NCBI RefSeq assembly: GCF_039649665.1
Contig: NZ_JBDJAW010000005.1
Span: forward strand, 124,001 to 188,000
Reading direction: 5' to 3'
Origin: Microbispora sp. ZYX-F-249
GTDB lineage: Bacteria; Actinomycetota; Actinomycetes; Streptosporangiales; Streptosporangiaceae
DNA: 64,000 nt
The position numbers and the translations under genes were made by a program. Under the pieces are notes generated by a model. That model searched no databases. It saw only the letters and a list, made by a program, of their open reading frames with translations, and was not told the DNA's origin. Within the stretch, counting starts at the first letter, position 1; each line of letters opens with the position of its first letter. Positions 7,767-55,155 of the stretch are shown piece after piece.

Positions 7767-7812
7767 CCGCCGTCTCAGGACGGATCGATCACGCCATGCG
7801 GCTACTCCCGGC

Positions 7813-7938
7813 TCAGAGCCAGTACCAGCCCAAAATGCTGTCGATCCACTTACCGCGGAGGGCATCCCGGGTCAGCTCGGAGAAGTCGCCGACCTCGGCG
7901 ACAGCCGGAGCCTCGTAAGGCGCCTTCTGCTCGTTCAT
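7813..7938 (-). CDS. Lasso peptide precursor A1
   Basis: A 41-residue precursor. Residues 1-23 are identical to those of the second precursor at 8050-8175. They carry the class II lasso leader landmarks Tyr8-x-x-Pro11, Gly17-x-Phe19 and Leu22-Thr23, which B1 recognises. Placing Thr23 at the usual -2 position gives the core DALRGKWIDSILGWYWL (residues 25-41), in which Asp33 is core residue 9 and could form a nine-membered ring with the N-terminus. An Asp as core residue 1 is unusual, so either the cut site differs or this product is atypical. The ribosome site AAAGGGGAG stands 4 bases before the ATG. It is too short for normal ORF calling and was found by reading the repeat. Confidence 0.88.
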   Translation of the reverse strand: MNEQKAPYEAPAVAEVGDFSELTRDALRGKWIDSILGWYWL

Positions 7939-8049
7939 GTTCTCCCCTTTCATGCGCCGGCGGCGCATCACCCGGACGTCAGGGCCGATGAGTCGTCTCG
8001 TCGGCCACCGCCCAGGACGGATCGATCACGACGTGCGGCTACGCCCGAC

Positions 8050-20979: not shown

Positions 20980-21282
20980 GCGCGGCGGCCGCACGTGATC
21001 GGCTCCGGCCGTTCCCGCATTCGTCCCGCTCCCCCACGATGCCGTCGGTATGTCGATCAACCAGGCGGATCCTGTCATATCCGGAGGTCACCCGGCAGCG
21101 AATCGGCCTCAGCCGTCGTGGCAGGAGCCGGAAGGCCCGGCCGCGCGGGCCCTGCCGGCATCCGCGCAGTTCATCCCGCGTAACACGCGGTTCACAAGTA
21201 AGTCTCAACCGGATGACAAGAGCGGTCGGGAGAAATGGATCCCGTTGCAGCGGTTCCACGGGGAATGGAACGGGGGCACCAC
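20980..21282. other. Divergent intergenic region ahead of the lanthipeptide cluster
   Basis: The region lies between the kinase gene (minus) and the P450 fusion gene (plus) and should hold the lanthipeptide promoter. A small palindrome CCGCG-TAACA-CGCGG lies at 21176-21190. GTTCACAAGTAAG follows directly. No good -10 hexamer is evident. If the kinase starts at its upstream ATG (21078), part of this is coding. Confidence 0.35.
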
Positions 21283-22905
21283 ATGACAACGATCGTCGGC
21301 GGCGGGGGCCGGACCCTGCTGATCCTCAACGCCGAGGGCGCGACGGGCCGCCTGGAGAGCGAACTCGCCGGCCTGGGCTGGCACACGGGCAGGGCCGACC
21401 TGATCGCGGGGGACCTTGCCGGCCTGGTGGACCGGCTCGCGGACCTGATGGCCGCGCCCGGCAGCCCGGACCGCACCGCGATCCTCGGATTCGGCGAGGC
21501 GGGCCTGGCGGCGCTGGAGATCGCCGACCGCCACCCGGAGCGGGTCACCGCCGTGGTCGTCGTGGGCACGGCGGAGCACGACCTCGCCGGGGAGCTGTCC
21601 TGCCCGACGCTGACGCTGCCCGCCTCCGGGCGGGAGTCCGTGGTCTCGGCGGTCGTCCCCTTCCTGACCACGCTGGACGCGGCGGACGCGGAGGCGGAGG
21701 CTCCCCCGCACCTGCCCGCCACGCTCCGGCCGCTCACACCGGCGCTGCTCAACGACGCCGAACTGCTCGGGCGGTTCCGTGAGATCGGGCCGGTCCACCG
21801 GCTCACCGCGGAGGGCGGCGCGACGACCTGGATCCTGACCGGTCACGCGGCGTCCACCCGGACGCTCACCGACCCGCGCCTCGCCGGAGAGGTGGAGATC
21901 ACCGCGGGGTTCCGGCTCCAGTCGGACGATCCGGCCCTCGCCCACAAGGGCGACCTGGACCTCATCACGATCGACGGCGGGGAGCACGCCCGGCTGCGCC
22001 GGCTCCTCGAGCGGCACCTCACCCCCGAGCGTGTCGAGGCGCTGCGCCCGCGGATCCGGCGCGCGGCCGACGCCCTGCTCGACGCGATCCCCGCCGGGGA
22101 GGTGGTGGACTTCCTCCACGCGTTCGCCTACCCGCTGCCGGTCCTCGTGCTGTGCGAGCTGCTCGGCGTGCCGGAGGACCGGCGGGGCCACATCCGCGAG
22201 TGGATCCTGGAGCGGCTGGTCACTCCGCCGCCGAAGGCGCACCCCGACATCGACGAGCTCCTGCGGGACCTGATCGCGGCGCGGCGCGAGAGCCCGTCGG
22301 ACGACCTGCTCGGCTGGGTCGTCGCGGCCGAGGGAGACGACCTGGCGGAGGACGACCTCGTGTCGGCGGCCCGGTTCCTCATGGTGAACGGCCACCGCGC
22401 CCCGACGACGGTGCTGGCGAGCGGCCTGGCCGCCCTGCTGAAGCGCCCGGAGCAGTGGGCCCGGCTCGTGGCCGAGCCCGCGCTGGTCGCCACGGCGGTC
22501 GAGGAGCTGCTGCGGCTCGTCACGCCCTTCCCCGTCACCATCGCCCGGCAGGTGACGGCCCCGATGGAGGTGGGAGACACCCCGATCCCCAAGGGCGATC
22601 TGCTCGGCGCGTCGCTCGTGGCCGCCAACCGCGACCCGTCGTTCTTCCCCGACCCCGATCTGCTGGACGTGGGACGGCGGGACAACCCGCACCTCGCGTT
22701 CGGCCACGGTCACCACCACTGTCTCGGTGCGGACCTGGCCAGGGCCCAGCTGCGGGTCGCCTTCGGCACGCTCGCGCGGCGCTTCCCCGACGTCGAGCTC
22801 GCCCGCGACTCGCGGAGCCTGCACTACCGGCAGAGCAGCGTGCGTTACCTCCTCGGCCTGCCGGTCGTCCTGCGCCCGGATCGTCGCGGGGAGCCCGCCG
22901 CCTGA
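21283..22905 (+). CDS. Degenerate alpha/beta-hydrolase domain fused to cytochrome P450
   Basis: A 540-residue fusion. Residues 5-135 look like a minimal alpha/beta hydrolase: TLLILNAEG strand, ILGFGEAGLAALEIA where the nucleophile elbow should be, and VTAVVVVG. The serine position is Gly71, so it is probably not catalytic. From about residue 150 it is a P450: DGGEHARLRRL (C-helix), EELLRL (ExxR), the haem loop FGHGHHHCLG with Cys480. The I-helix reads NGHRAPTT (369-376) where AGHETT is usual; the Glu-Thr pair for proton delivery is lost. It precedes LanKC by 70 bases and probably acts on, or scaffolds modification of, the lanthipeptide. ATG 21283 follows GGGGG; ATG 21265 lacks a site. Confidence 0.85.
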   Translation: MTTIVGGGGRTLLILNAEGATGRLESELAGLGWHTGRADLIAGDLAGLVDRLADLMAAPGSPDRTAILGFGEAGLAALEIADRHPERVTAVVVVGTAEHDLAGELSCPTLTLPASGRESVVSAVVPFLTTLDAADAEAEAPPHLPATLRPLTPALLNDAELLGRFREIGPVHRLTAEGGATTWILTGHAASTRTLTDPRLAGEVEITAGFRLQSDDPALAHKGDLDLITIDGGEHARLRRLLERHLTPERVEALRPRIRRAADALLDAIPAGEVVDFLHAFAYPLPVLVLCELLGVPEDRRGHIREWILERLVTPPPKAHPDIDELLRDLIAARRESPSDDLLGWVVAAEGDDLAEDDLVSAARFLMVNGHRAPTTVLASGLAALLKRPEQWARLVAEPALVATAVEELLRLVTPFPVTIARQVTAPMEVGDTPIPKGDLLGASLVAANRDPSFFPDPDLLDVGRRDNPHLAFGHGHHHCLGADLARAQLRVAFGTLARRFPDVELARDSRSLHYRQSSVRYLLGLPVVLRPDRRGEPAA

Positions 22906-22975
22906 TCGCGAGGCCGGTGCCCGTCTCACCAGAAAAGTCCCCCACGCACGCCTTCAGCAGCCAGGAGCCGACCCG

Positions 22976-25546
22976 ATGAAAGAGACGATTCCGCAGTTAG
23001 TGGCCTACTGTCAGGCCGACCCGCTGTTCTTCGAGCCGGTCTGGCGCATCCCCGACGACGACAACCGCTTCCCGGCGGGCTCCCGGCCGCTGCCCGCCGG
23101 ATGGCGCCGCGGCGAGAGCGAGCTGTGGGTCGTGCTGCTCCCGCCGGACCTCGCGCTTCCGGAACAGGGATGGAAGATCCACGTCTCGGCGACCGACGCC
23201 GACGCCGCCGCCGTCTGCGACCTCGTGGCCGGCTTCTGCCTGGAACGCGGCATCGCCGTCAAGTTCCTGCGCAGCAGGATGGCGGTGCGGCTGATGAACA
23301 ACAAGTACGCCGACCGGGGCAGCAGCGGCAAGCTGGTCACCCTGTATCCGGTGGACGAGGAGCAGTTCGCCGAGGTGCTGCCCGCGCTGGCCGAGCTGCT
23401 CAGGGGATACACCGGGCCGTACATCCTCAGCGACCTGCGCTACGAGGACTCGCCGGTCTACGTCAGATACGGCGCGTTCCAGCCGATGACGTACACCAAA
23501 TCGGACGGCAGCCTCGGATACGCGATCCGCACGCCGGACGGCAGGCTGGTGCCCGACCAGCGCACTCCCGCGTTCACCGTGCCGGAGTGGGTCACCCTCC
23601 CCGAGGTGCTGCGCGGGTCGTACGAGAAGCACACGGCGGGCGACGGGGAGGAGCTGCCGTACCAGATCGAGCGGGCGCTGCACTTCTCCAACGGCGGCGG
23701 CGTCTACCTCGCCCGTGACGCGGCGTCCGGCGGGTACGTGGTGCTGCTGGAGGCCCGGCCCCACGCGGGCCTGGACGCCGGGGGCGTGGACGCGGTCGCC
23801 CGGCTGGCGCACGAGCGCGACATCCTGGAGCGGCTGAGCGGGCTCGACTGCGTGCCCCGGCTGCTCGGCCACAAGGTGATCTGGGAGCACCACTTCCTGG
23901 TCGAGGAGTACATCGAGGGCAAGACCCTGCTCGACGAGGTGTTCGAGCGCTACCCGCTCGCCACCCCCGACCCGGCCCCCGAGACGCTGGCCGCCTACAC
24001 CCGCTGGGCGATCGACATCCTGGCCAAGGTCGACCACGCCCTGATGTCGATCCACGCCAGAGGCGTGCGGATCGCCGACCTGCACCCCGAGAACATCATC
24101 GTCCGGCCCGACGGGCGCGTCGCGCTCATCGACTTCGAGATCGCGTCCGACCTGACGGACACGCGGCCGCCCGGCCTCGCGGCGGCGGGGTTCGCCGCGC
24201 CCAAGGAGCTGAGCGGCCGCGCGGCCGACAACTACGTGCTGAACTGCCTGCGGCAGTGGATGTTCCTGCCGATCAGCCCGCTGCAGGACCGCGACCCGGT
24301 CAAGCTGGCCAGCCTCACCGACGTCATCACCGGTCACTTCCCCCTGCCGCCGGGGTTCGGTGCGCGTATGGTCCGCAACTTCGAGGCGGTGCGGGGACCC
24401 CTCGGCGAGGACGCCGCGGCGCGGATGTTCGCCGAGCCGGACTGGCCGGCCATCCGCGACTCCATCGCGGCGGGCATCACGGCCGGCGCGACGCCCGATC
24501 GGAAGGACCGGCTCTTCCCCGGAGACCCGCAGCAGTTCGCGACCGGCGGGTTCACCGTGGCCAACGGCGCCGCCGGAGTGCTGTGGGCCCTGCGGCAGGC
24601 CGGTGTCCCGGTGCCGGAGGAGTACGTGGACTGGCTCGTCACGGCCGTGCGCCGGGCGCCCGATCCGCGTCCCGGCCTGCTGAACGGCCTGCACGGCGTG
24701 GCCGCGACGCTCGAGTCGCTCGGCCGCCGCGACGACGCGCTCGACGTGCTCGACCGGGCCCGCAAACTGCACGACGGCCTGGAGGTCCCCGGCCTCCACG
24801 GCGGCCTGGCCGGAGCCGGCCTCAACCTCCTGCACTTCTTCGCGATCACCGGCGACGAGGACCTGCGCGCGGAGGCCGTGCGCATCGCCGACCGGCTCGC
24901 CCGCGAGCTCGGCGACGACGGGTCGCGCGTGTTCCGCCCGGACGGCAGGGTCGGCCTGCAGCACGGCCTGACCGGGGTCGCGTCCTACTTCCTGCGGATG
25001 CACGACGTCACCGGGGAGTCCGGCTATCTCGACCTGGCCCGTACGGCGCTGCGGCGCGAGATCGGCCGCGGCCAGACGCTGCCGGACGGCGGCTTCTGTC
25101 TCCTGGACAGCAACCGATACCTGCTCTACCTCGGCACCGGCAGCGGCGGGCTGGCCCTGGTGCTGTCCCAGTATCTCGGCCGGCGTGAGGAGCCGGGCTT
25201 CGCCGACGTGGTCGGCGGCGTCCGCCGCGCCCTGCGCGCGCCGTTCACCCGCCACCCGGCCCTGCTCGAGGGCCGGGCGGGCACCATCGCGACCCTCCGC
25301 CTCATGGGCCTGCCGGAGGACCGGCCGCTCGTCGACGAGCACGTACGCCGGCTCTCCTGGCACGCCCTGTCCTACGAAGGCCACCTGGCCTTCCCCGGCA
25401 ACCAGCTCATGCGGCTCTCCATGGACCTGGAAACGGGTTCCGCCGGTGTGCTGGCCGCCCTCAGCGTCGCGTTCGACCAGAGCGCGTCGGTAATGCCGGT
25501 TCTCGATCTGCGGACCCCCGCGTTCGAGACGACAGAAAGGAAATAG
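22976..25546 (+). CDS. lanKC: Class III lanthipeptide synthetase
   Basis: An 856-residue three-domain enzyme. The N-terminal lyase-like part (1-~220) is followed by a Ser/Thr kinase-like domain with ADLHPEN (Asp368, Asn373) and DFE (Asp386 in ALIDFEIA), then a LanC-like cyclase domain (about 500-856) with LLNGLHG, GLHGGLAG and GLQHGLTG but without the zinc ligands of class I/II cyclases. Such enzymes phosphorylate Ser/Thr of the precursor, eliminate phosphate and close lanthionine or labionin rings. ATG 22976 has GGAG at 8 bases, and the frame further upstream is a shadow. The precursor gene starts 4 bases after the stop. Confidence 0.95.
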   Translation: MKETIPQLVAYCQADPLFFEPVWRIPDDDNRFPAGSRPLPAGWRRGESELWVVLLPPDLALPEQGWKIHVSATDADAAAVCDLVAGFCLERGIAVKFLRSRMAVRLMNNKYADRGSSGKLVTLYPVDEEQFAEVLPALAELLRGYTGPYILSDLRYEDSPVYVRYGAFQPMTYTKSDGSLGYAIRTPDGRLVPDQRTPAFTVPEWVTLPEVLRGSYEKHTAGDGEELPYQIERALHFSNGGGVYLARDAASGGYVVLLEARPHAGLDAGGVDAVARLAHERDILERLSGLDCVPRLLGHKVIWEHHFLVEEYIEGKTLLDEVFERYPLATPDPAPETLAAYTRWAIDILAKVDHALMSIHARGVRIADLHPENIIVRPDGRVALIDFEIASDLTDTRPPGLAAAGFAAPKELSGRAADNYVLNCLRQWMFLPISPLQDRDPVKLASLTDVITGHFPLPPGFGARMVRNFEAVRGPLGEDAAARMFAEPDWPAIRDSIAAGITAGATPDRKDRLFPGDPQQFATGGFTVANGAAGVLWALRQAGVPVPEEYVDWLVTAVRRAPDPRPGLLNGLHGVAATLESLGRRDDALDVLDRARKLHDGLEVPGLHGGLAGAGLNLLHFFAITGDEDLRAEAVRIADRLARELGDDGSRVFRPDGRVGLQHGLTGVASYFLRMHDVTGESGYLDLARTALRREIGRGQTLPDGGFCLLDSNRYLLYLGTGSGGLALVLSQYLGRREEPGFADVVGGVRRALRAPFTRHPALLEGRAGTIATLRLMGLPEDRPLVDEHVRRLSWHALSYEGHLAFPGNQLMRLSMDLETGSAGVLAALSVAFDQSASVMPVLDLRTPAFETTERK

Positions 25547-25549
25547 GAA

Positions 25550-25660
25550 ATGGCTCAGGTTCTGCAGCTCCAGACCCTCAACCCGAACGAGGCCAAGGCG
25601 CACCCGTGCTCCAGCATCGTGACCTCGTACAACGGCACCGCCTGCTACATCTGCGTCTGA
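25550..25660 (+). CDS. Class III lanthipeptide precursor
   Basis: A 36-residue precursor placed directly behind LanKC. Its leader has the class III recognition motif VLQLQTL (residues 4-10). The likely core is the tail from about His18: HPCSSIVTSYNGTACYICV, with three Cys (20, 32, 35), three Ser and two Thr. Ser22-x-x-Thr25 and Ser26 ahead of Cys32 resemble labionin/lanthionine precursors but do not fit the canonical Ser-x2-Ser-x-Cys spacing exactly, and the leader is unusually short. An AGGAAA ribosome site lies in the end of lanKC. Too short for ordinary ORF calling. Confidence 0.9.
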   Translation: MAQVLQLQTLNPNEAKAHPCSSIVTSYNGTACYICV

Positions 25661-25684
25661 CCGAGGCCGATCGAGCGGGCGCCG

Positions 25685-25709
25685 GGGTGGTCGCCGCCGG
25701 TGACCACCC
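25685..25709 (+). terminator. Hairpin after the lanthipeptide precursor
   Basis: GGGTGGTC (25685-25692) and GACCACCC (25702-25709) form an 8-base-pair stem around a nine-base loop, 25 bases after the precursor stop and 113 bases before the exporter gene. Its position mirrors the hairpin behind the lasso precursors and suggests partial termination or protection of the precursor transcript. Confidence 0.6.
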
Positions 25710-25821
25710 GGTGAACGCTCGCGGACGGTGAGACACCCGGCCCCGGCCGGTCGCGCCCGGCGCGGCCCGGCCGGGGCCGGACTCTACGCTCTCCCTCTCC
25801 CACAGTCTTTGCGAGGAATCC

Positions 25822-27600
25822 GTGGACACGCAGCGCGACCAGTCCGCCGCGCCGGCGGCGGCTCCGGCCACGTGGCGGGTGCTGCTGCGCTACATGCGCC
25901 CGTCCTGGCGCTGGCTCGCCCTCGGCGGGCTGCTGAACCTCACGACCGGAGCGGTCGGGCTGACGCTCCCGCTCGTCGCCAGGCGGCTGATCGACGACCT
26001 CGGCGCCGACCGGCCGCTGACCGGCGTCCTGCTGCTGATGGGCCTGCTCGTCGTCGTGACCGCGGGCGTCGGCCCGCTGGGCGAGTGGGTGCTGCGCCGC
26101 ACCGGCGAGTCGATCGTGCTCACCGCCCGCCGGCGCCTGGTCTCTCATCTGCTGCGGCTGCGGGTGCCGGCCCTCGACCGCGCCGAACCCGGCGACCTGA
26201 TGTCCCGGGTCACCTCCGACACGATCCTGCTGCGCCAGGTCACCACCGATTCGGTGATCGGCATCGTCACCGGGAGCCTCACGGTCCTGGCGACCGCCAC
26301 GCTTATGGGCCTGCTCGACCCCGTGCTCCTCGTGGTCACGCTCGGCGTGCTGGTGCTCGCCGGGACGCTCATCCGGGTGGTCATGCCGCGCGTCGGCAGG
26401 ATGAGCAAGGACGCGCAGAAGTCCGTCGGGGCGATGGGCGCCGCCCTCGAACGCGCGCTCGGAGCACTGCGCACGATCAAGGCCTCCGGCGCCGAGCACC
26501 GGGAGGAGGCCGCCGTCCACCGCTCCGCGGAGGAGTCGTGGCGGGCCTCCGTACGTGCCGGCAAGTGGCTGGCGATCGCCGGGCACACCGCGGAGCTGGC
26601 CCTCCAGGTGGCCTTCTTCGTCGTCCTCTCCGTGGGCGGAAGCCGGGTGGCCTCCGGGGCGATCGACGTGGGCACGCTGATCGCGTTCCTGATGTACGTC
26701 TTCTTCCTGGTGCCGCCGCTTCAGCAGCTCATCGGCGCGGCCGGGCAGTACCAGGTCGGCGCCGCCGCGGTCGCCCGCATCACCGAGGCGGAGCGGCTGC
26801 CCGCGGAGCCGGTCGCGCCGGCCGCGACGCTCCCGGCGTCCGGCGCGGCCCCCGCGGAGCTGGAGTTCCGCGACGTGCACTTCCGCTACGGGCCGGAGCT
26901 GCCGCCGGTCCATCACGGGATCAGCTTCCGCGTGCCCGCCCGGGGCATGACCGCCTTCGTCGGGCCCTCCGGCGCGGGCAAGACCACGGTGTTCTCCCTC
27001 ATCGAGCGGTTCTACGAGCCGGCCTCGGGGAGCATCCTCATCGACGGCGGCGACATCGCCACCTGGGACATCCCGCGCCTGCGGGCCGCCATCGGCTACG
27101 TCGAGCAGGACGCTCCCGTCCTGTCGGGCTCCCTGCGCGACAACCTCCTGCTCGGCGCGCCCGAGGCCACTGGCGAGGAGATCGAGCGCGTCCTGCGCGT
27201 CGCCCGCCTCGACGCTCTGGTGGCGCGGCTGCCCGAGGGCCTGGACACCCTGGTCGGCCATCGCGGCACCCGCCTGTCCGGCGGTGAGCGCCAGCGCGTG
27301 GCCATCGCCCGCGCGCTTCTGCGCCGCCCCCGCCTGCTGCTGCTGGACGAGGCCACCTCCCAGCTCGACGCCGTCAACGAGGCGGCGCTGCGCGACACGA
27401 TCGCCGAGATCGCGCGTACGACGACGGTCCTGGTCGTGGCGCACCGGCTGTCCACGGTCACGCTGGCCGACCGGATCGTCGTGATGGACGCGGGCGTGGT
27501 GCGGGCCGTCGGCACGCACGAGGAGCTGGTCGGGGCCGACCCCCTCTACGCCGAGCTGGCCGCCACCCAGTTCCTCGCCGCCTCCGCCGTGACCGCGTGA
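25822..27600 (+). CDS. ABC exporter of the lanthipeptide cluster
   Basis: A 592-residue fused exporter: six-helix membrane domain (about 35-325), then an ATPase with [26 protein letters not shown] and AHRLS. It has no N-terminal peptidase domain, so it should export rather than trim the peptide. The GTG at 25822 has GAGGA upstream. It is closely related to the lasso exporter at 44-1783, sharing the order of motifs and long identical stretches in the ATPase part. It is followed after 21 bases by the radical SAM gene. Confidence 0.93.
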
Positions 27601-27621
27601 ACCATCCTCTTTGGAGCATCC

Positions 27622-28650
27622 ATGGAAACGCCCGACCGCCCGCTTGAGATCATCTGGGACATCACGTACGCCTGCCCGCTGCGGTGCTTCCACTGCTACT
27701 CCGAGTCCGGCCGCCGTCCCTCGCGGCAGCTGGAGCGGGACGAGATGCTGCGGGCGGCGGACGCCGTCATCGCGATGCGGCCGTACGGCGTCTGCCTGGC
27801 CGGCGGCGAGCCCCTCCTGGTGCCGGGCGTGCTCGACGTCGCCGGCCGCATGACGGCCGCGGGCGTGCGGGTCTCCCTCTTCACCGGAGGCTGGACGCTG
27901 CGCCCGCAGATGGTCGGGGACCTCGCGCGGACCGCCGCCAGGGTGAGCGTGAGCCTCGACGGCGCCACGGCGGAGGTGCACGACCGCGTCCGCGGCCGCC
28001 GCGGCTCGTTCGACCGGGCGATGGACGCCCTCGCCTTGCTCGACGCCGCCGCGCGGGAGCGGCGTCTGGCCGGAGACGGACCGCTGTCCTTCGGGATCGA
28101 CTGCGTCGTCGTGCGCAGCAACTTCGACCAGATCGACCAGTTCTGCACCGACATCGCGCCGAGGTTCCCCGAGCTGGAGTACGTGTCGTTCGGCGCGGTC
28201 ATCCCGGAGGGGCTCGCCAGCCGCACGGGGGTCGTGGAGCACGAGCTGCTGTCCGACGCCCAGGTCGCCCTGCTCGGCAGCCGCGAGTTCACCCGCCGCC
28301 TGCGCGCGCTGGCGCCGCCGTCCGTCCAGGTGAGCGCGACCGACAACCTCGCGCTGCAGATGCACCCCGACCGGCCGTTCCTCCCCGTGCTGCAGGTCGA
28401 GCCCGACGGAGCGGTCCGGGCCATGCCGGCGTACGAGGGCACGGTCGGCAACCTGCTGACGGACCCGCCGGAACGGCTGTGGGAACGCGCGCTGGAGCGC
28501 TGGCGCGACCCCTTCGTGGTCGAGACGTTGAGGTCCGTGCACACGATGGAGCAGTGGGCGGAGGCGACCCGGAAGATCGACTACCGCTTCGGCTCCGACG
28601 CCGACCGCGCCCGCATCGACCGCCGGCCGCACTTCGCGCCCACGGCCTGA
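27622..28650 (+). CDS. Radical SAM protein of the lanthipeptide cluster
   Basis: A 342-residue radical SAM protein with the cluster-binding motif CPLRCFHC (Cys18, Cys22, Cys25), the GGEPLL motif and a SPASM-like C-terminal stretch LQVEPDGAVRAMPAYEGTVGN. The cysteine that normally follows VxP in that stretch is replaced by Met, and the C-terminal third has no cysteine set for auxiliary clusters, so a single [4Fe-4S] cluster is expected. SPASM-type relatives act on peptides (thioether, C-C bond or epimerisation). The spacing of 21 bases after the exporter and an SD (TTTGGAGC) point to one operon with the lanthipeptide genes. Radical SAM enzymes are not a standard part of class III clusters; the reaction is unknown. 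Confidence 0.87.
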   Translation: METPDRPLEIIWDITYACPLRCFHCYSESGRRPSRQLERDEMLRAADAVIAMRPYGVCLAGGEPLLVPGVLDVAGRMTAAGVRVSLFTGGWTLRPQMVGDLARTAARVSVSLDGATAEVHDRVRGRRGSFDRAMDALALLDAAARERRLAGDGPLSFGIDCVVVRSNFDQIDQFCTDIAPRFPELEYVSFGAVIPEGLASRTGVVEHELLSDAQVALLGSREFTRRLRALAPPSVQVSATDNLALQMHPDRPFLPVLQVEPDGAVRAMPAYEGTVGNLLTDPPERLWERALERWRDPFVVETLRSVHTMEQWAEATRKIDYRFGSDADRARIDRRPHFAPTA

Positions 28651-29587: not shown

Positions 29588-29732
29588 ATCTCACGATAGG
29601 CGCGCCCGCCGTACGCCGGTGGACACGCGGAGTCGATGTACGGAGAACGTATTCGGCCGGTATCGGTATTATTTCGACCCTTTTTACAGTTTCGGTGACC
29701 CTGAACGGTTCTCCATTGAGAGGCGGTTCGAC
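29588..29732 (+). promoter_or_regulatory. AT-rich region ahead of the cysteine-rich peptide gene
   Basis: The 145 bases between DUF72 and the peptide gene include the clearly AT-rich stretch GGTATTATTTCGACCCTTTTT near 29664-29685, which stands out in this GC-rich window. It is the likely promoter area for the plus-strand operon, but I cannot assign hexamers with confidence. Confidence 0.4.
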
Positions 29733-29906
29733 ATGTTCACCAAGATGGCCGACCGGCTGATTTCCCGGCTGGCGCCGAAGCACTCGGCGCAGGCCGCGTG
29801 CCCCTGCTGGTATGAGGGCACCGCCTGTCTCTTCCGCAAGTGCTGCACCTACGGAGCGTCCTGCGGCACCGGTGAGTCCTGCGGCAACTGGATCCTGAAC
29901 TGCTAG
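29733..29906 (+). CDS. Cysteine-rich peptide precursor (eight Cys)
   Basis: A 57-residue peptide. Residues 1-21 form a basic, helical leader without a hydrophobic core (MFTKMADRLISRLAPK), ending in Ala19-Gln20-Ala21, an A-x-A signal-peptidase-like site. The remaining 36 residues hold Cys 23, 25, 32, 37, 38, 44, 50 and 57, i.e. C-x-C-x6-C-x4-CC-x5-C-x5-C-x6-C, plus Trp26 and Trp53. Four disulfides are possible. Downstream genes encode a signal peptidase, two disulfide-type redox proteins and an exporter, so this is probably a secreted disulfide-rich peptide. The CxxG and Trp-x-x-x-Cys spacing faintly recalls the light chain of methylamine dehydrogenase, whose maturation needs MauE and MauD. 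No family is recognised with certainty. Confidence 0.8.
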   Translation: MFTKMADRLISRLAPKHSAQAACPCWYEGTACLFRKCCTYGASCGTGESCGNWILNC

Positions 29907-29922
29907 CCCGGACGGAGTGACG

Positions 29923-30354
29923 ATGCTCGCGTGGACGGCCGCACTCGTCGTCGTCGCCGGCCTGGCTCTGCTGTGGCTGCGGCGTAGTCTCGCCGTCGTC
30001 GTGGTGTCCGGCGTCAGCATGGAGCCGGCCTTCCACGCGAGCGACCGGCTCCTCGTCCGCCGGTCCGGACCGTCCCGGCTCAAGGTCGGAGACGTCGTCG
30101 TCTTCACCCGGCCCGGCCGCTACGCCGGCGAGGAACTCCTGCCGGTCGAGGAGCGCTGGATGGTCAAGCGGGTGGCGGCGCTTCCCGGAGACCCGGTGCC
30201 CGAATCGGTCCTTCCCGCGGTCGCGCAGCCGCGGGTCGCCGCCGACCGGCTGGTCGTGCTGGGAGACAACCCGGCGGCCAGCTACGACTCACGCCAGTTC
30301 GGATTCCTCCCGGCGGACCTTCTCCTCGGGGTCGTGCTGCGGCGGATGCACTGA
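29923..30354 (+). CDS. Type I (S26) signal peptidase, single membrane anchor
   Basis: A 143-residue signal peptidase with one N-terminal membrane helix. Box B SGVSMEPAF carries the catalytic Ser32, box D MVKRVAALPGD the Lys82 base, and GDNPAASYDSRQFG closes the domain. It is shorter than a housekeeping LepB and lies 16 bases behind the cysteine-rich peptide, so it is likely dedicated to cutting that precursor after Ala-Gln-Ala. ATG 29923 follows GGACGGAG; a GTG at 29917 is an alternative. Confidence 0.9.
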   Translation: MLAWTAALVVVAGLALLWLRRSLAVVVVSGVSMEPAFHASDRLLVRRSGPSRLKVGDVVVFTRPGRYAGEELLPVEERWMVKRVAALPGDPVPESVLPAVAQPRVAADRLVVLGDNPAASYDSRQFGFLPADLLLGVVLRRMH

Positions 30355-30368
30355 CCGAAGGAGCAACG

Positions 30369-30893
30369 GTGGACTACCTCACTGTGGGCTGCCGCAGCCT
30401 GCTGGCGCTGCTGTTCCTGGCCTCGGCCGGGGGCAAGCTGCGCGGCGCCGGCGCCTACCGGGACTTCGTGGCGGCCACCGGCAGACTCGCCCCGCGGTTC
30501 CTCCCCACCCGCTGGGCCGCGGTCGCGGTGGTCGTCACGGAGATCGCCATCGCGGCGCTGGTCGCCGTGCCCGCGACGACCACGGCCGGGTTCCTGCTGG
30601 CCGCCGTCCTTCTCACCGCGTTCACGCTCGCGATCCTGGCCGCGTTGCGGCGCGACGAACGGACGCCGTGCGCCTGCTTCGGCCGCTCCCGCCGTCGTCT
30701 CGGGGGCGGCCACGTGGTGCGCAACCTCCTCCTCCTGGTCGTCGCGGGGCTCGGTCTCGCGGGATCGGCGTCCGCGGCGGCCGGGCCGGCCGACACCGCG
30801 GGCATCCTGACGGCCGTCGCGGCCGGCGCGGCGGGCGCCCTCCTCGTGTCCCTCGCCGACGACTTCATCGACCTGTTCAGCCCTGTCGCCTGA
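30369..30893 (+). CDS. MauE/DoxX-like membrane oxidoreductase
   Basis: A 174-residue protein with four to five membrane helices, an N-terminal LFLASAGGKLRG stretch typical of MauE/DoxX proteins, and a PCACFG motif (Cys101, Cys103) on a loop facing the membrane surface. MauE is required for folding of the heavily disulfide-bonded small subunit of methylamine dehydrogenase. With a cysteine-rich peptide in the same operon, a function in electron transfer for disulfide formation or exchange is likely. GTG 30369 follows AAGGAG. No methylamine dehydrogenase genes are in the window. Confidence 0.87.
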   Translation: MDYLTVGCRSLLALLFLASAGGKLRGAGAYRDFVAATGRLAPRFLPTRWAAVAVVVTEIAIAALVAVPATTTAGFLLAAVLLTAFTLAILAALRRDERTPCACFGRSRRRLGGGHVVRNLLLLVVAGLGLAGSASAAAGPADTAGILTAVAAGAAGALLVSLADDFIDLFSPVA

Positions 30894-30911
30894 GATCGGA
30901 AAGGCCGCCCG

Positions 30912-31457
30912 ATGCCGTACCTCGTCACGCTCGTCGTCCTCGTGGGTGTGCTCTGCCTGGTGAACCTCGTCCTGATCGTCGGCGTGATCCGGCGGCTGCG
31001 CGAGCACGGCGAAGCCCTTGCCGACAGAAGCGCACAGGAGCAGAACCGGCGGGCCATCCTTCCCGAGGGAGAGGTGGCGGAGCCGTTCGAGACCGTCTCC
31101 ACCGACGGCAGCGTCGTCTCACGCGACCGGTTGGAGCAGCCCACGCTGGTCGGCTTCTTCTCCCCCGGCTGCACGGCCTGCCACGAGGCGCTGCCGGACT
31201 TCCTCGCCCTGGCCGCGCGCTTCCCCGGCGGTCCTGAGCAGGTGCTCGCCGTCATCCTGGACGAGAACGGCGAGCTGGGCGAGCAGCGCGAGGCACTCGA
31301 ACCGGTCGCCCGTGTGGTGGTCGAGAAGCTGGGCGGTCCGGTCAGCTCCGCGCTCCACGTCCGGGCCCTCCCCTCGTTCGGCCTCGTCGGTCCCGGCGGC
31401 AGGGTGATGTCCAGCGGCCTGCGCCTGGAGCAGGTCCTCACCACCGCACCCGCCTGA
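30912..31457 (+). CDS. MauD/TlpA-like thioredoxin-fold protein
   Basis: A 181-residue membrane-anchored redox protein: one N-terminal helix (residues 4-27), then a thioredoxin-like domain with the active site SPGCTACHE (Cys87, Cys90) and the cis-Pro region ALPSFGLV. MauD, its counterpart in mau operons, forms disulfides in the small subunit together with MauE. The CTAC motif and extracytoplasmic position suit an oxidase or isomerase for the eight-cysteine peptide. It follows the MauE-like gene by 18 bases with a GGAAAGG site. Confidence 0.88.
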   Translation: MPYLVTLVVLVGVLCLVNLVLIVGVIRRLREHGEALADRSAQEQNRRAILPEGEVAEPFETVSTDGSVVSRDRLEQPTLVGFFSPGCTACHEALPDFLALAARFPGGPEQVLAVILDENGELGEQREALEPVARVVVEKLGGPVSSALHVRALPSFGLVGPGGRVMSSGLRLEQVLTTAPA

Positions 31458-31516
31458 GCACGCGCCCCCGCCGGTCCCGTCGAGTCCCCATCCCGTCCAG
31501 TCACGGAGCAGCGCCG

Positions 31517-33427
31517 ATGTCGGACACGCCACCGCAGAACGGCCCCGCGAGCTCCCCCGAGCCGCCCGCGCCGCCCGTGCCCCCCAGGGCCACCCCCGCC
31601 GCCCTGGCCGCGGCGCTCGCCCTGGCCTGGCGGGCGGGCCCCTGGCACACCCTCGCGTACGGGCTGCTGGTGCTGGTGGAGGCGGCTCTGCCGGTCGCCA
31701 CGGCCTGGCTGACCAAGTCCGCTCTCGACCTGCTCGTCAGCCGGGCGCACGGCAGTGCCTTCTGGACGGTCGGGGCCGGGCTGGCCGCCACCGGCCTGGC
31801 GTCGACCGTGCTGCCGCACACCTCCGGATATCTGCGTCAGGAGCTGGCCCGTCGCACCGGACGGCTCGCCCAGGACCGGCTGTTCGCGGCCGTGGAGCGG
31901 TTCGCCGGCCTGGGCCGCTTCGAGGACCCGGTGTTCCACGACCGCCTCAGCCTGGCCTACCAGTCGGGCGGCGTGGCGCCGAACGCGGTGGTGGGGGGCA
32001 CTCTCGCGACCGCCCGAGGGCTGGTCACCGTGCTGGGCTTCCTCGGCTCGCTGCTGGTGATCAACGCCGTGCTGGCGGTGGCGGTCCTGGCCGCCGCGGT
32101 GCCCGCGTTCCTCGCCGAGCTGCGGCTGTCGCGGCAGCGGGCCACCATGTTGTGGCGGATCGGACCGGTCGAGCGGCGGGAGCTGTTCTACCGTCAGCTG
32201 CTGACCAGCGTGCGGGCCGCCAAGGAGATGCGCCTGTTCGGCGCGGGACGATACTTCCGCGAACGGATGATCGAGGAACGCGCCGTCGCCGACGCCGAGC
32301 GGCGGGGGCAGGACCGCCGCGAGCTCACCGCCGAGGGCGGGCTGGGCCTGCTGTCGGCGGCGATCGCCGGCGGCGGCCTGATCTGGGCGCTGTTCGCCGC
32401 CGCCGGCGGACGCATCACCGCGGGCGACGTCGCGCTGCTCACCGCCTCGATCGTGGGCGTCCAGGCCGCCGTCGCGGCGCTGGTCGGCGAGGTGACGACG
32501 GCCCACCAGCAGGTGCTGACGTTCGGCCATTACCTGGCCGTGGTCCGGGCCGGGCCGGACCTCCCCGTACGCGAGCGGGCGATCGCGCCGGGGAACCTGC
32601 GGCAGGGCATCGAGTTCCGCGATGTCTGGTTCCGCTACTCCCCCGGCCATCCGTGGACGCTGCGCGGGGTTCGTTTCACCATCCCCGCGGGCACGGCGGT
32701 CGGACTGGTGGGCCGCAACGGCGCGGGCAAGAGCACGATCGTCAAGCTGCTGTGCCGGTTCTACGACCCGGTGCGGGGCTCGATCCTGTGGGACGGCGTG
32801 GACCTGCGCGACCTCGACCCCGCCGAGTTGCGGCGGCGTGTGGGCGCGGTGTTCCAGGACTACATGGAGTACGACCTGACGGCGGCGGAGAACATCGCGG
32901 TCGGCGACCTGCGCGACGGCCGGATGGACCTCGACGACGGCCGCATCGAGGCGGCCGCGCGCCGCGCCGGCGTGCACGAGACCGTCGCCGCGCTGCCGCT
33001 TGGCTACCGGACGATGCTCACGCGCATGTTCTTCGGCCCACCCGGCGAAGGGGCGGACGCCGAGAGCGGGGTCGTGCCGTCAGGCGGCCAATGGCAGCGG
33101 CTGGCGCTCGCCCGTGCGCTGCTGCGCGACCGGCAGGACCTGCTCATCCTGGACGAACCGAGCTCGGGCCTGGACGCCGAGGCGGAGCACGAGATCCACA
33201 CGAGGCTCCGGGCGCACCGCGCCGGGCGCACGAGCCTGCTGATCTCACACCGGCTCGGCGCGATCCGGGAGGCGGACCTGCTCGTCGTGCTCGACGAGGG
33301 ACGGGTGGCCGAGAGCGGCACGCACGAGGAGCTCATGCGGCTCGGCGGCCTCTACCACCGGCTGTTCCTGCTGCAGGCACAGGGTTACCAGGAGCAGACC
33401 GTGGAATCCCCTGCTGCGGGCGGATGA
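31517..33427 (+). CDS. ABC exporter of the cysteine-rich peptide operon
   Basis: A 636-residue fused half-transporter with a Pro-rich N-terminal extension (about 30 residues), six membrane helices and an ATPase domain: GRNGAGKST, VFQDYMEYDLTAAENI, VPSGGQWQRLALARALL, LLILDEPSSGLD and SHRLG. The signature SGGQWQR and the type of membrane domain place it with exporters commonly found in RiPP loci of actinomycetes; there is no peptidase domain. It should move the peptide across the membrane before or together with cleavage by the signal peptidase. The ATG at 31517 has only a weak GGAG upstream. Confidence 0.9.
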   Translation: MSDTPPQNGPASSPEPPAPPVPPRATPAALAAALALAWRAGPWHTLAYGLLVLVEAALPVATAWLTKSALDLLVSRAHGSAFWTVGAGLAATGLASTVLPHTSGYLRQELARRTGRLAQDRLFAAVERFAGLGRFEDPVFHDRLSLAYQSGGVAPNAVVGGTLATARGLVTVLGFLGSLLVINAVLAVAVLAAAVPAFLAELRLSRQRATMLWRIGPVERRELFYRQLLTSVRAAKEMRLFGAGRYFRERMIEERAVADAERRGQDRRELTAEGGLGLLSAAIAGGGLIWALFAAAGGRITAGDVALLTASIVGVQAAVAALVGEVTTAHQQVLTFGHYLAVVRAGPDLPVRERAIAPGNLRQGIEFRDVWFRYSPGHPWTLRGVRFTIPAGTAVGLVGRNGAGKSTIVKLLCRFYDPVRGSILWDGVDLRDLDPAELRRRVGAVFQDYMEYDLTAAENIAVGDLRDGRMDLDDGRIEAAARRAGVHETVAALPLGYRTMLTRMFFGPPGEGADAESGVVPSGGQWQRLALARALLRDRQDLLILDEPSSGLDAEAEHEIHTRLRAHRAGRTSLLISHRLGAIREADLLVVLDEGRVAESGTHEELMRLGGLYHRLFLLQAQGYQEQTVESPAAGG

Positions 33428-33485
33428 TCGGGATCGTGAGATCCGGTCGCGCCGGTCGCGGCGGCTCGGGCACCGGGGGCGGCGG

Positions 33486-34298
33486 TCAGCGGCGGCTCGG
33501 GCGCCGGGGTCGGGGGCAGGCCGTCCTCCTGGACCGCCACCCGACGGCGGGCCCGGCCAGCCGAGGGTCACGGTTGAGCATGAGATGGTGCAGCTCGGTG
33601 AGCTCAGGCCCCGGTTCTATACCGAGGTGCAGATTCAGCGCCTCCCGCGCCTCGCCGTAGACGGTCAGCGCCCCCGCCACGTCCCCCGTCCGGTAGAGGG
33701 CGACCATGAGGTGGCCCCAGAGCCGCTCACGTGTGGGACGCAGCGCCAGGGTCTCCCGTAGCCCGCCGATGACCTCGGCGTACCGCCCGAGAGCCAGTCT
33801 CGCCCGCGCCGCCTCCTCGACCGCCAGGAATCGCTGTTCCTCAAGCGCGTCGAGCTGGGCCGCGACTCCCATCGTGCGGGGAACGTCCTCGGCCGCGCCA
33901 CCCCGCCACAGCCCGAGCGCCGCGCTGAAGTGACGCAGCCCTTCCGCGTGGTCGCTTCTCGCCATCGCCTCCCGTCCCTGGCGCAGCGACTCACGGAACT
34001 CCAGCACGTCGAGCTCTTCGTCGCAGACCGTGAGCGAGTAGCCCGGCGGCCGGGCTCGCAGACGGTGGTCGTCCAGCCGCCTGCGCAGCAGGTTGACGTA
34101 GCTGCGCACGTTGGCGAGCGCCGACTTCGGCGGCCGGTCCTCCCACAGCGCGGCGAAGAGCCGCTCGATGGAGACGGGTCTGTTCGGTTCGAGCAGCAGG
34201 CAGGTGAGCAGTAGACGCTGCTTGGCCGCACCGAGGTGGACGGGTTCTCCGCCCTGCCACACCTGAACCGGACCGAGAATGCCGAACCTGAGGCGCAT
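33486..34298 (-). CDS. Small SARP-type activator
   Basis: A 270-residue SARP consisting of a winged-helix DNA-binding domain (RFGILGPVQVWQGGEP, AKQRLLLTCLLLEPNRPVS) and a BTAD domain (ALNLHLGIEPGPELTELHHLML) with no ATPase or TPR part. ATG 34298 has GGGGAGGGG just upstream; the frame is open to 34367. It converges with the exporter gene and is the likely activator of the cysteine-rich peptide operon. Its last codons read through a GC-rich imperfect repeat (GGCGGCTCGGGC, twice). A perfect CebR-type box lies 31 bases before its start. Confidence 0.9.
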   Translation of the reverse strand: MRLRFGILGPVQVWQGGEPVHLGAAKQRLLLTCLLLEPNRPVSIERLFAALWEDRPPKSALANVRSYVNLLRRRLDDHRLRARPPGYSLTVCDEELDVLEFRESLRQGREAMARSDHAEGLRHFSAALGLWRGGAAEDVPRTMGVAAQLDALEEQRFLAVEEAARARLALGRYAEVIGGLRETLALRPTRERLWGHLMVALYRTGDVAGALTVYGEAREALNLHLGIEPGPELTELHHLMLNRDPRLAGPAVGWRSRRTACPRPRRPSRR

Positions 34299-34328
34299 CC
34301 ACCCCTCCCCGACTTCGCTCCCGGGTGG

Positions 34329-34342
34329 TGGGAGCGCTCCCA
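34329..34342 (-). promoter_or_regulatory. CebR/CelR-type operator upstream of the SARP gene
   Basis: TGGGAGCGCTCCCA, a perfect 14-base palindrome, is identical to the consensus site of the LacI-family cellobiose regulators CebR (Streptomyces) and CelR (Thermobifida). It lies 31 bases upstream of the SARP start codon, where repressor binding would block transcription. No CebR-like gene is in the window. Confidence 0.75.
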
Positions 34343-34773
34343 GGGAAGGTATGCGCCTGTCGATCACGTGTCAACGATGTTCTGTATTCGTTTACAGGAG
34401 ATGACGGACGCCCGGAAACGGTCAGCCGTTTGGCCCTGGCGACGCCTGCGGCCTGCGTTGACGCGAGACGCTGACGTGCGGCGACGCATGGGTGTCACGG
34501 CCCGCACACGGTCCGTGCGCCACGGCCGCGATTAGTTGCCGGGGTACACCAAATGAAAGCTTCACCTTGCGGCTTCACGCGCAGCCGGCGACTCGATCCC
34601 GGCCGCCGGTTCCGCGCCGGGGGCGGGGACGAGGCCGGAGATCACGTCACCCCGAGGGGCCGGGACCGATGCGGCAGGAGTGACCCGTGAAGCGGCGGCG
34701 GGTCTATGATGTCGGAAAATAAAGTGCCCCGGTGTTCCGGTGGCACCTCAAAGCATGCACACCGGAGGTGGCG
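34343..34773. other. Intergenic region between SARP and the XRE-linked gene pair
   Basis: About 430 bases without a convincing gene. A short palindrome CTGTA-N6-TACAG lies at 34382-34397. The AT-rich stretch GTCGGAAAATAAAG around 34711-34724 precedes the gene at 34774 and may hold its promoter. Small open frames here do not look coding. Confidence 0.35.
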
Positions 34774-53685: not shown

Positions 53686-54102
53686 ATGACGGTAGCCGTT
53701 CCACCAGCGGGTGGCGGCGGACTGCCGGGCCGGTCATCGGGATCGGGCCTGGCCGACGTCATTGACACGATCCTGGACAAGGGCCTCGTGATCGACGCCT
53801 ACGTACGGGTCTCACTGGTCGGCATCGAGATTCTGACCATCGACGTACGCGTCGTCGTCGCGAGCGTCGACACCTACCTCCGTTTCGCCGAGGCGGTGAA
53901 CCGGCTGGACCTGGCATCCCAGCAGCAGGGGCTGCCCGACCTCCTGTCGAGCGCGCCCCAGAGCATCGCCCGCGGGAAGTCCAAGGGCGTGGCCCAGGGC
54001 GTGCTGGAGGCGGCCGGGGAGAAGCTGCAGGACATGTTGGCGAGCTACGCGGAGGAGGAACCCGCCCCGCGTACCCGCCGTCGTCGACGGGAGGATGACT
54101 GA
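53686..54102 (+). CDS. gvpA: Gas vesicle structural protein GvpA
   Basis: A 138-residue protein whose core ([50 protein letters not shown]) is the highly conserved ribbed-wall subunit of gas vesicles. The C-terminal extension after about residue 70 (helical, ending in an Arg/acidic tail) is typical of actinobacterial forms. ATG 53686 follows GAGGGGAAACG. The stop overlaps an upstream ATG of the gvpF frame. Confidence 0.95.
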
Positions 54103-54103
54103 G

Positions 54104-54895
54104 ATGTCGGGCTCCATCAAGCAGTCCGGGGCGGGTGACCGGGCCGAGGCCGCCCGGCCCAACACCGCGTGCTACGTCTACGGCATCCTCCCCGAGGACG
54201 TGGAGATCAGCGAGGACGCCGTCGGCGTGGGCGAGCCCCCCGGCCGGGTCACGATCATCCGCCACGGCGAGATCGCCGCCCTGGTGAGCGACGTGGACGT
54301 GGACCGTCCCCTCGGCCGCGCACAGGACCTGGTGGCCCACGAGCAGTTGCTCGACGATGCCGCGGCGGAGGTCCCCGTGCTCCCCCTGCGGTTCGGCGCG
54401 GTGATGACCACACCCGAGGCGGTCGTGGAGGAACTGCTGGCCCCGCACCACGACTCGTTCGCGGCCGCCCTCAAGCAGATCGAGGGGCGCACCCAGTTCG
54501 TCCTCAAGGCGCGGTACGCCGAGCAGCCGGTGCTGGTCGAGGTGCTGACGGAGAACGCCGAGGCCAGACAGTTGCGCGACCGGATCAGGCAGTTGCCGGA
54601 AGAGGTGACCCGCAACGAACGGATCCGGCTGGGCGAGCTGATCACGCAGATCATCGCCGCGAAGCGCGAGGCCGACACGCAGGCCGTCGTCGAACGCTTC
54701 GAGCCCTTCACCGCCGGTGTGGTCGTCCGCGACCCCAGTCACGAGCGGGACGCCGCGCACGTCGCGTTCCTCGTCGAGAACGACCGCCAGACCGACTTCG
54801 AACGCGCCGTCGGGGAGTTGCGCTCCGAGTGGGGCGACCGGGTCGAGGTCCGCCTGCTCGGGCCGATGGCGCCGTACGACTTCGTCACCACCTGA
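54104..54895 (+). CDS. gvpF: Gas vesicle protein GvpF (GvpL/F family)
   Basis: A 263-residue GvpF/L family protein: YVYGILPEDVEISEDAVGVGEP, GEIAALVSDVDVDRPLGRAQDLVAHEQLLDDAAAEVPVLPLRFGAV, and the C-terminal FLVENDRQTDFERAVGELR ... VRLLGPMAPYDFV. GvpF starts gas-vesicle assembly and binds GvpA. ATG 54104 is preferred, with GGGAGG at 8 bases; ATG 54095 overlaps the end of gvpA. Confidence 0.95.
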   Translation: MSGSIKQSGAGDRAEAARPNTACYVYGILPEDVEISEDAVGVGEPPGRVTIIRHGEIAALVSDVDVDRPLGRAQDLVAHEQLLDDAAAEVPVLPLRFGAVMTTPEAVVEELLAPHHDSFAAALKQIEGRTQFVLKARYAEQPVLVEVLTENAEARQLRDRIRQLPEEVTRNERIRLGELITQIIAAKREADTQAVVERFEPFTAGVVVRDPSHERDAAHVAFLVENDRQTDFERAVGELRSEWGDRVEVRLLGPMAPYDFVTT

Positions 54896-54914
54896 CTCAT
54901 GAGGGGAGGCCGTC

Positions 54915-55148
54915 GTGGGACTGATCAGTGCGTTGTTCACCTGGCCGCTCGCCCCGGTCCACGGCGTGATCCGGCTGGGCGAGCTGATCCAGAAGCAGGT
55001 CGAGCATGAGCTGAGGGACCCCGCGGCGGTCCGGCGGCGGCTGGAGGCCATCGAGGAGGCCAGGCGCTCGGGTCAGATCTCCGAAGAGGAGGAGGCCCAG
55101 GCCGTGGAGGAGATCCTCAGGCTCATGAGCGGCTCGCGGCGGGGGTGA
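54915..55148 (+). CDS. gvpG: Gas vesicle protein GvpG
   Basis: A 77-residue helical protein with the GvpG pattern (LISALFTWPLAPVHGVIRLGELIQKQVEHELRDPAAVRRRLEAIEEARRSGQISEEEEAQAVEEILRLM). A minor, essential assembly factor. GTG 54915 follows GGGGAGG. Confidence 0.94.
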   Translation: MGLISALFTWPLAPVHGVIRLGELIQKQVEHELRDPAAVRRRLEAIEEARRSGQISEEEEAQAVEEILRLMSGSRRG

Positions 55149-55155
55149 GCATCCC

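What the first reader, a model, noticed from the sequence alone, without database searches (positions are those of the whole stretch)
29733..34298. Possible undescribed system for making a disulfide-rich peptide
An eight-cysteine, 57-residue peptide with an A-Q-A cut site and no hydrophobic signal core is followed by its own small type I signal peptidase, a MauE-like CAC membrane protein, a MauD-like CTAC thioredoxin and a peptidase-free ABC exporter; a SARP gene converges on them. In mau operons MauE and MauD help fold the disulfide-rich dehydrogenase small subunit, but no dehydrogenase genes are present. The peptide's Trp/Cys spacing only faintly recalls that subunit. I know of no named RiPP class with exactly this gene set.
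Basis: partly seen in the sequence, partly recalled or inferred. Interest (0 to 1): 0.88.

Follow-up and report, generated by a model that had tools for sequence, protein, structure and literature searches.

The report
Exported disulfide-rich peptide with dedicated maturation genes
Soil bacteria carry a little-known gene set that appears to switch on, export, cross-link and trim small cysteine-rich peptides; it recurs in many forms and may yield unexplored natural products, but no product has been seen yet.

Summary
A 57-aa, 8-Cys precursor (29733-29906) is followed by an S26 signal peptidase, a MauE-like protein, a MauD/TlpA-like CTAC redoxin and an ABC exporter without a peptidase domain; a SARP gene faces them. 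I found 124 related precursors in 96 other loci. The leader (LxDRLLxRLVPxxxAxA) is conserved, the cores hypervariable. Cysteine number is 4, 6, 8 or 10: even in 84 of 85 non-redundant cores as parsed, the odd one a misplaced start. S26, MauE, MauD and ABC all lie near the precursor in 71 of 96 loci. The reverse holds: 38 of 40 MauD-like genes in the genus, and 13 of 13 opened plasmid loci found by ABC or MauD only, have such a precursor. A triple repeat with SARP-operator spacing occurs once in 64 kb, just before the precursor. The own genome has four copies and no methylamine dehydrogenase gene over the Pfam cut-offs. Best reading: ABC export without Sec, disulfide formation outside, then S26 cleavage. 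Product, bonds and activity are untested. decRiPPter (2020) already listed Streptomyces candidates with mauE/mauD and Cys-rich precursors, so the idea is partly in print.

The parts
29638..29662 (+). Triple direct repeat GTA-N8-GTA-N8-GTA (11-bp period), proposed SARP operator; TATTAT (-10-like) starts 4 bp after the third GTA
   Evidence: only match in 64 kb, 0 in 100 shuffles; kept in five relatives; two-repeat form upstream of 40 of 125 precursor genes against 33 of 2500 random places; sequence
29733..29906 (+). Precursor peptide gene: leader residues 1-21 (ends A-Q-A), core residues 22-57 with 8 Cys
   Evidence: 124 related precursors in 96 other loci
29917..30354 (+). Dedicated type I (S26) signal peptidase with a hydrophobic N-terminus; S34 and K84 invariant in the family (catalytic role recalled)
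   Evidence: PF10502 5.9e-22, TIGR02227 over cut-off, conservation, hydropathy
30369..30893 (+). MauE-like membrane protein with C101-A-C103; both Cys invariant in aligned rows
   Evidence: PF07291 4e-26, conservation
30912..31457 (+). MauD/TlpA-like membrane-anchored redoxin, C87-T-A-C90, P154 invariant
   Evidence: Pfam thioredoxin/AhpC matches below cut-off; conservation; one membrane helix
31517..33427 (+). ABC exporter, membrane and ATPase parts in one chain, no C39 peptidase match
   Evidence: PF00005 1.1e-26; MsbA-type NCBIfam matches; nucleotide-binding motifs kept
33486..34367 (-). SARP regulator (winged helix plus BTAD), convergent
   Evidence: PF03704 4.9e-38, PF00486 8.9e-8

Best explanation
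This is one member of a large actinomycete family of dedicated production lines for disulfide-rich secreted peptides. The SARP binds the 11-bp repeats and switches the precursor on. The precursor has no Sec signal; its amphipathic leader (LxDRLLxRLVP) is recognised by the ABC exporter, which moves the whole precursor across the membrane. Outside, the membrane-anchored MauD-like redoxin, recycled by MauE, forms or reshuffles the disulfides. The membrane-bound S26 peptidase cuts after A-Q-A and releases a 36-residue peptide with four disulfides (predicted monoisotopic mass 3861.47). The released peptide most likely acts on competing bacteria. Shown here: gene content, co-occurrence in both directions, conserved leader with variable core, even cysteine count, kept active-site residues, operator-like repeats. 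Inferred: order of steps, direction of electron flow, cleavage point, disulfides, activity.
For: Within 8 kb of a precursor: S26 90, MauD 86, ABC 83, MauE 76, SARP 58 of 96 loci; the first four together 71 of 96. Reverse: 38 of 40 MauD-like genes; 13 of 13 opened plasmid loci found by ABC or MauD only, with 18 precursors, all of even Cys number. The five largest neighbour clusters are ABC 86, MauE 57, SARP 56, S26 49, MauD 45 loci by BLAST; the next is a LuxR-type response regulator in 24, median 5.3 kb away. Even Cys in 84 of 85 non-redundant cores, the odd one mis-started; 237 of 736 control short ORFs are odd. Leader pN/pS 0.017/0.144 against core 0.161/0.283 in 13 relatives. Leaders are not signal-peptide-like; S26 and MauD have hydrophobic N-termini. 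Operator repeats. AlphaFold core blocks pLDDT 74-91 with three strands, leader below 50.
Against: No product, mass, bond or activity has been observed. Four of 96 loci have none of the four machinery genes near (L069, L073, L083, L139) and MauE is missing near 20 of 96. The operator is found for a minority (40 of 125 same strand, 50 of 125 either strand). In the window's own close group of 6 the core does not change faster than the leader. No immunity candidate recurs, as a bacteriocin might need, though my gene caller skipped ORFs under 70 aa. The 96 loci were collected by precursor similarity and are related, so counts are not independent.
Confidence: 0.72

Rival explanations
1. Same biosynthesis, but the peptide is a developmental or signalling factor rather than an antimicrobial.
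For: One version (own-genome copy on C62) is present with nearly the same leader in 13 of the 15 genomes of the genus, as a conserved trait would be; SARP control; no immunity candidate recurs among genes of 70 aa or more.
Against: Cores are hypervariable; unlike versions sit in one genome (four in G000); the window version was seen in one of 15 genomes of its genus yet is close to those of another genus; related sets occur on Streptomyces and Embleya plasmids.
Confidence: 0.2
2. The Cys-rich core binds a metal and the machinery keeps it reduced; the peptide is a secreted metallophore or metallothionein.
For: High Cys content (17% of core residues); TlpA-type redoxins can also be reductants (general knowledge).
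Against: Even cysteine number with 4, 6, 8 or 10 Cys, His only about 1.5%, and no metal-uptake family among the neighbour clusters that I annotated.
Confidence: 0.07
3. The peptide is a lanthipeptide or other RiPP modified by the enzymes of the neighbouring class III lanthipeptide-like cluster (21.2-28.7 kb).
For: A RamC-like synthetase and a radical SAM gene lie 1-7 kb upstream.
Against: That cluster has its own precursor-like ORF (25550-25660) and a DUF72 gene on the other strand lies between. Its synthetase matches 2 of 117 other fetched loci, one of them a dropped chance locus, and its radical SAM none at 1e-6.
Confidence: 0.03
4. The gene run is a relic or variant of methylamine dehydrogenase maturation.
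For: MauE and MauD-like proteins.
Against: Neither dehydrogenase subunit has a match over the Pfam cut-off in the whole own genome, the peptide matches no such family, and the cores vary beyond any single enzyme subunit.
Confidence: 0.02

Closest known systems
decRiPPter mauE/mauD candidate families in Streptomyces (PMC7794033; passages and section 7 read)
   Same: mauE and in one case mauD homologues beside a predicted precursor with at least 8 Cys; judged likely to modify RiPP precursors
   Different: Its main text does not contain 'signal peptidase' or 'S26', and section 7 mentions neither the leader motif, even cysteine number nor SARP repeats; no product shown for these families in the parts read. 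I could not see its Table S2, so identity of those precursors with this family is likely but not shown
Actifensins, defensin-like bacteriocins of Actinomyces (PMC6989792; passages read)
   Same: Small exported peptides with three disulfides, variable sequences, ABC genes, sometimes several precursor genes in a row
   Different: [quoted passage not shown] no MauE, MauD or S26 in the passages read; the C6 defensin cysteine spacing is not that of this core
mau operons (MauE and MauD, methylamine dehydrogenase; recalled and as cited in PMC7794033)
   Same: MauE plus MauD pair linked to a disulfide-rich small protein
   Different: No dehydrogenase subunit in the own genome over Pfam cut-offs; substrate is a variable short peptide with its own exporter and peptidase
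Class II bacteriocins and sublancin-type peptides with thiol-disulfide helpers (recalled)
   Same: ABC export plus a dedicated redoxin
   Different: Those exporters carry a C39 peptidase that cuts after GG/GA; here the exporter has no C39 match and an S26 enzyme with AxA sites is present

Membership tests
RiPP (leader plus core, post-translational change, cluster) | Conserved leader, variable core, dedicated genes beside the precursor | tested here: met
RiPP (leader plus core, post-translational change, cluster) | Post-translational modification of the product demonstrated | not testable with these tools
   Even Cys number only suggests disulfides
decRiPPter mauE/mauD candidate families | mauE, with or without mauD, beside a precursor of at least 8 Cys in Streptomyces | tested here: inconclusive
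   The window locus fits the description and related sets occur in named Streptomyces plasmids, but the paper's precursor table was not seen
Methylamine dehydrogenase maturation (mau) | Dehydrogenase subunit genes with the mauE/mauD genes | tested here: not met
   None among the nine window proteins scanned; none over the Pfam cut-off in the own genome (no control genome exceeded the cut-off either, so there was no positive control)
Class III lanthipeptide | LanKC synthetase that recurs with this precursor | tested here: not met
   The window's LanKC matches 2 of 117 loci, one a dropped locus, and has its own precursor-like ORF. LanB and LanM were not searched with models of their own
C6 defensin / actifensin | Cys motif C-x5-12-C-x3-C-x9-10-C-x4-5-C-x-C | tested here: not met
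   Window core spacing is 1,6,4,0,5,5,6; motif from PMC6989792
Double-glycine bacteriocins with C39 exporters | C39 peptidase domain in the exporter and GG/GA leader | tested here: not met
   No C39 match; leaders end AxA
Knottin (cystine knot) | Six-Cys order C-C-CC-C-C | tested here: inconclusive
   Exact order in 36 of 87 non-redundant relatives; the window has 8 Cys, six of which, those conserved in A3, follow it; loop lengths often differ from classical knottins (recalled)
Knottin (cystine knot) | Knotted disulfide connectivity | tested here: inconclusive
   [not shown]
SARP-controlled promoter | Direct repeats at 11-bp period before the -10 element | tested here: met
   rule from PMC10936776 and PMC5930380 (passages)
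SARP-controlled promoter | Binding of this SARP to the repeats | not testable with these tools
   needs a gel shift

The most novel reading that the evidence does not exclude
A separate, widespread class of ribosomal natural products in actinomycetes: precursors exported whole by a peptidase-free ABC transporter independent of Sec, oxidised outside by a MauE-MauD pair, and released by their own type I signal peptidase, with a variable library of 2- to 5-disulfide cores (many with knottin-like cysteine order) made from one conserved leader.
Probability: 0.6. Interest if true: 0.85.

Novelty: new variant of a known kind. Interest (0 to 1): 0.76.

Why it matters
If true, a common but unnamed pathway would give bacteria a general way to make disulfide-stabilised mini-proteins, a scaffold type valued in drug design. 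One conserved leader with interchangeable cores is an obvious engineering platform. It would also give MauE and MauD, whose roles in mau operons are described as speculative or unclear (PMC7794033), a small and testable substrate. Targets are at hand: the window's genome holds four such loci, and a studied species, Streptomyces clavuligerus, has one on pSCL4.

Tried and rejected
Considered and set aside: methylamine dehydrogenase relic, LanKC substrate, metallopeptide (see rivals). The radical SAM, ABC and DUF72 genes upstream are not part of the system: in the first 60 loci no DUF72 match and one weak radical SAM match 7.3 kb away in L087.

Led nowhere: plasmid tblastn with the peptide itself (no match); the genome-contig scan gave one locus, Nonomuraea basaltis L009, which is the same contig as L040 by length and position; profile search of solved structures (best E 0.16, unrelated large proteins); Pfam, NCBIfam and PHROGs scans of relatives (scattered weak matches); VIA second look on the model. 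The phylum-wide ABC search scored only three candidates per genome and missed one copy in the own genome, so it says nothing about absence.

Counts and dropped rows: one search listed 80 places; 60 regions were fetched. Dropped before counts: L089, L092, L161, L162, L163 (chance hits), L164 (no precursor), L209 (leader not readable), and the L130 chance match at 1354. An earlier, cruder parse gave 78 even of 81: two odd ones were cuts placed past a Cys, one the L130 chance match. In one search some cut points fall before the true AxA; since the leaders proper hold no Cys this does not change the counts, except L132 at 8309, whose start was wrong (7 by script, 6 by hand). L210's precursor was started at an internal ATG for A2. 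Plasmid matches at E 0.1 or weaker were ignored. The 13 plasmid loci include near-duplicates (L257/L258, L255/L256, L251/L253), and one of the many S. clavuligerus records was opened. Neighbour clusters were named by eye (first five) and by Pfam for ten of the smaller ones; YcaO, LanB and LanM were not searched with their own models.
Full report
WHAT IS THERE. The precursor ORF (29733-29906), S26 peptidase, MauE, MauD-like redoxin, ABC exporter and convergent SARP are all present as described. The peptide reads MFTKMADRLISRLAPKHSAQA / ACPCWYEGTACLFRKCCTYGASCGTGESCGNWILNC, the slash marking the proposed cut. It matches no Pfam or NCBIfam family. In the leader the most hydrophobic 12 residues average 0.06 on the Kyte-Doolittle scale, against 2.31 and 3.09 over 18 residues for the N-termini of the S26 and MauD proteins, so a classical Sec signal peptide is unlikely.

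A FAMILY, NOT A SINGLETON. tblastn with the peptide over 345 genomes of the order gave matches at E 0.01 or better in 62, weak ones included. Of 80 places listed I fetched 60 regions; 58 encode a Cys-rich ORF with the same kind of leader, two (L089, L092) are chance. A profile (A1) matched in 30 of 394 genomes of the class; I fetched 36 regions, 32 with real precursors. Together: 124 precursors in 96 loci, the window not counted; 77 loci have one precursor, 15 two, and four have three to seven. A wider profile (A2) matched 34 of 199 genomes of genus g87, family f20, at 0.001; that genus is unnamed, probably Streptomyces, and those loci were not opened.

LEADER AND CORE. In 42 members D7 and C37 are invariant and P15, A19, A21, C25, C38, C50 nearly so. 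Across 86 members the consensus is LxDRLLxRLVPxxxAxA followed by a variable core, with D7, P15, A19, A21, C25, C37 and C50 at 90% or more. In 13 relatives of the second own-genome copy, non-synonymous change is 0.017 in the leader and 0.161 in the core, with synonymous 0.144 and 0.283. In the window's own close group (6 sequences) leader and core do not differ in this way (0.118 and 0.116), so the contrast is not universal.

CYSTEINE PARITY. After thinning cores to at most 0.70 similarity, 85 remain: 6 with 4 Cys, 51 with 6, 24 with 8, 3 with 10 and one with 7. The one with 7 (L132 at 8309) is a script error in the start; after its own A-R-A it has 6. At a 0.45 limit 54 of 55 are even, with the same exception. 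Among 736 other Cys-rich short ORFs from the same loci 237 are odd. The 18 precursors in the 13 plasmid loci are all even. Homologous cores are not independent draws, but steps between 4, 6, 8 and 10 without odd states are what paired cysteines predict.

CO-OCCURRENCE BOTH WAYS. Within 8 kb of a precursor: S26 90, MauD 86, ABC 83, MauE 76 and SARP 58 of 96 loci; the first four together 71 of 96; none of the four in 4 of 96. Gene order differs between lineages. Reverse test 1: the window's MauD searched in 15 genomes of the genus gave 40 genes in 14 genomes; 38 have a precursor within 8 kb, against about 0.5% expected by chance, and 38 of 40 precursors have a MauD. The exceptions L210 and L209 have, respectively, a precursor found with the wider profile and a Cys-rich ORF without a readable leader. 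One genome (G076) has neither. The precursor profile used here was partly built from the same genus. Reverse test 2: plasmid records found with the ABC (29 records) or MauD (28 records); I opened 13 places and 13 have at least one precursor, though some are near-duplicates. They include S. clavuligerus pSCL4 (two precursors, annotated hypothetical proteins), S. atratus, S. nigrescens, Embleya and Nonomuraea gerenzanensis. Reverse test 3: the own genome has 6 MauE genes over the Pfam cut-off; 4 sit in full sets with precursors (and the window); 2 solitary ones have no precursor or S26 and no significant MauD nearby (one has an ABC gene about 8.8 kb away).

LITTLE ELSE RECURS. Clustering 1368 predicted neighbour genes of 70 aa or more gave ABC (86 loci), MauE (57), SARP (56), S26 (49) and MauD (45) by BLAST; four further clusters reach ten loci or more: a LuxR-type response regulator (24, median 5.3 kb), a short-chain dehydrogenase (13), a histidine kinase (11) and a FUSC-type exporter (10). 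These look like background. The window's own LanKC and radical SAM do not recur. YcaO, LanB and LanM were not searched with their own models, and small immunity genes under 70 aa would be missed. Conserved positions: S26 S34 and K84 in all rows with a letter; MauE C101 and C103 likewise; MauD C87 in all, C90 in 96%, P154 in all; ABC nucleotide-binding motifs. The own genome has no methylamine dehydrogenase subunit over the Pfam cut-offs.

REGULATION. Aligning upstream DNA with five Nonomuraea-type loci (genus inferred from L009 and L040 being one contig) shows three GTA-containing repeats at 11-bp period, about 95 bp before the start. The pattern GTA-N8-GTA-N8-GTA occurs once in the 64 kb and in 0 of 100 shuffles. 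In 1.75 Mb (loci plus window) it occurs 24 times; 13 of 125 precursor genes (window included) have it within 300 bp upstream on the same strand, about 0.002 expected each. Of the ten other hits nine lie within about 105 bp of a precursor, MauD or SARP gene start and one 362 bp from a SARP gene. The two-repeat form is within 250 bp of 40 of 125 genes, random places 33 of 2500, and other periods from 6 to 18 bp give 0 to 5; on either strand 50 of 125 against 47 of 2500. Published SARP sites are direct repeats at 11 bp ahead of the -10 element (PMC10936776 and PMC5930380, passages). Binding by this SARP is inferred.

WHAT IS KNOWN. The only held paper with both MauE and RiPP as whole words since 2018 is decRiPPter. 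Its text reports three Streptomyces candidate families with mauE, one also with mauD, each with a predicted precursor of at least 8 Cys, and argues that the proteins modify RiPP precursors. It shows no product for them in the parts read. The listings showed no characterised member; papers in those listings other than the ones cited were not opened. A review of leader proteases (PMC10885120) does not contain 'signal peptidase' or 'S26', and actifensin loci use other genes (PMC6989792, passages). Most subscription papers and all preprints were not searchable.

JUDGEMENT. The production line is well supported as a unit; its chemistry and purpose are inference. I rate it a new variant of a known kind (leader-directed, disulfide-bonded secreted peptides) with a partly published hint, and a good candidate for a class of its own if a product is isolated.

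Noticed in passing
window 21235-28650 (+): A separate class III lanthipeptide-like cluster: P450, RamC-like LanKC (PF25816 6.1e-75), a 36-aa precursor-like ORF (25550-25660, by eye), ABC exporter and a radical SAM gene. The radical SAM partner may deserve its own look.
   Followed up: partly
window 5113-7971 (-): Lasso-peptide-like cluster: asparagine-synthase-type cyclase, transglutaminase-like B2 protein and a short precursor-like ORF ending LRGKWIDSILGWYWL (precursor judged by eye).
   Followed up: partly
window about 53686-57000 (+): Gas vesicle gene run (PF00741 match at 53686-54102; the rest by eye).
   Followed up: no
L049, L129, L130 (same genome as the window): Three further copies of the system in the same genome with unlike cores (6, 6 and 8 Cys).
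   Followed up: partly
L090 8279-14162: Seven precursor genes around one MauD-ABC-S26-MauE set, all cores of the C-C-CC-C-C order: a natural array of variants.
   Followed up: no
L209 7689-8027: Cys-rich ORF beside MauE-MauD-ABC whose leader is not readable in frame and with no S26 gene found in the stretch: decaying copy or sequence error.
   Followed up: no
L069, L073, L083, L139: Precursor genes with none of the four machinery genes within 8 kb; possibly served by another locus of the genome.
   Followed up: no
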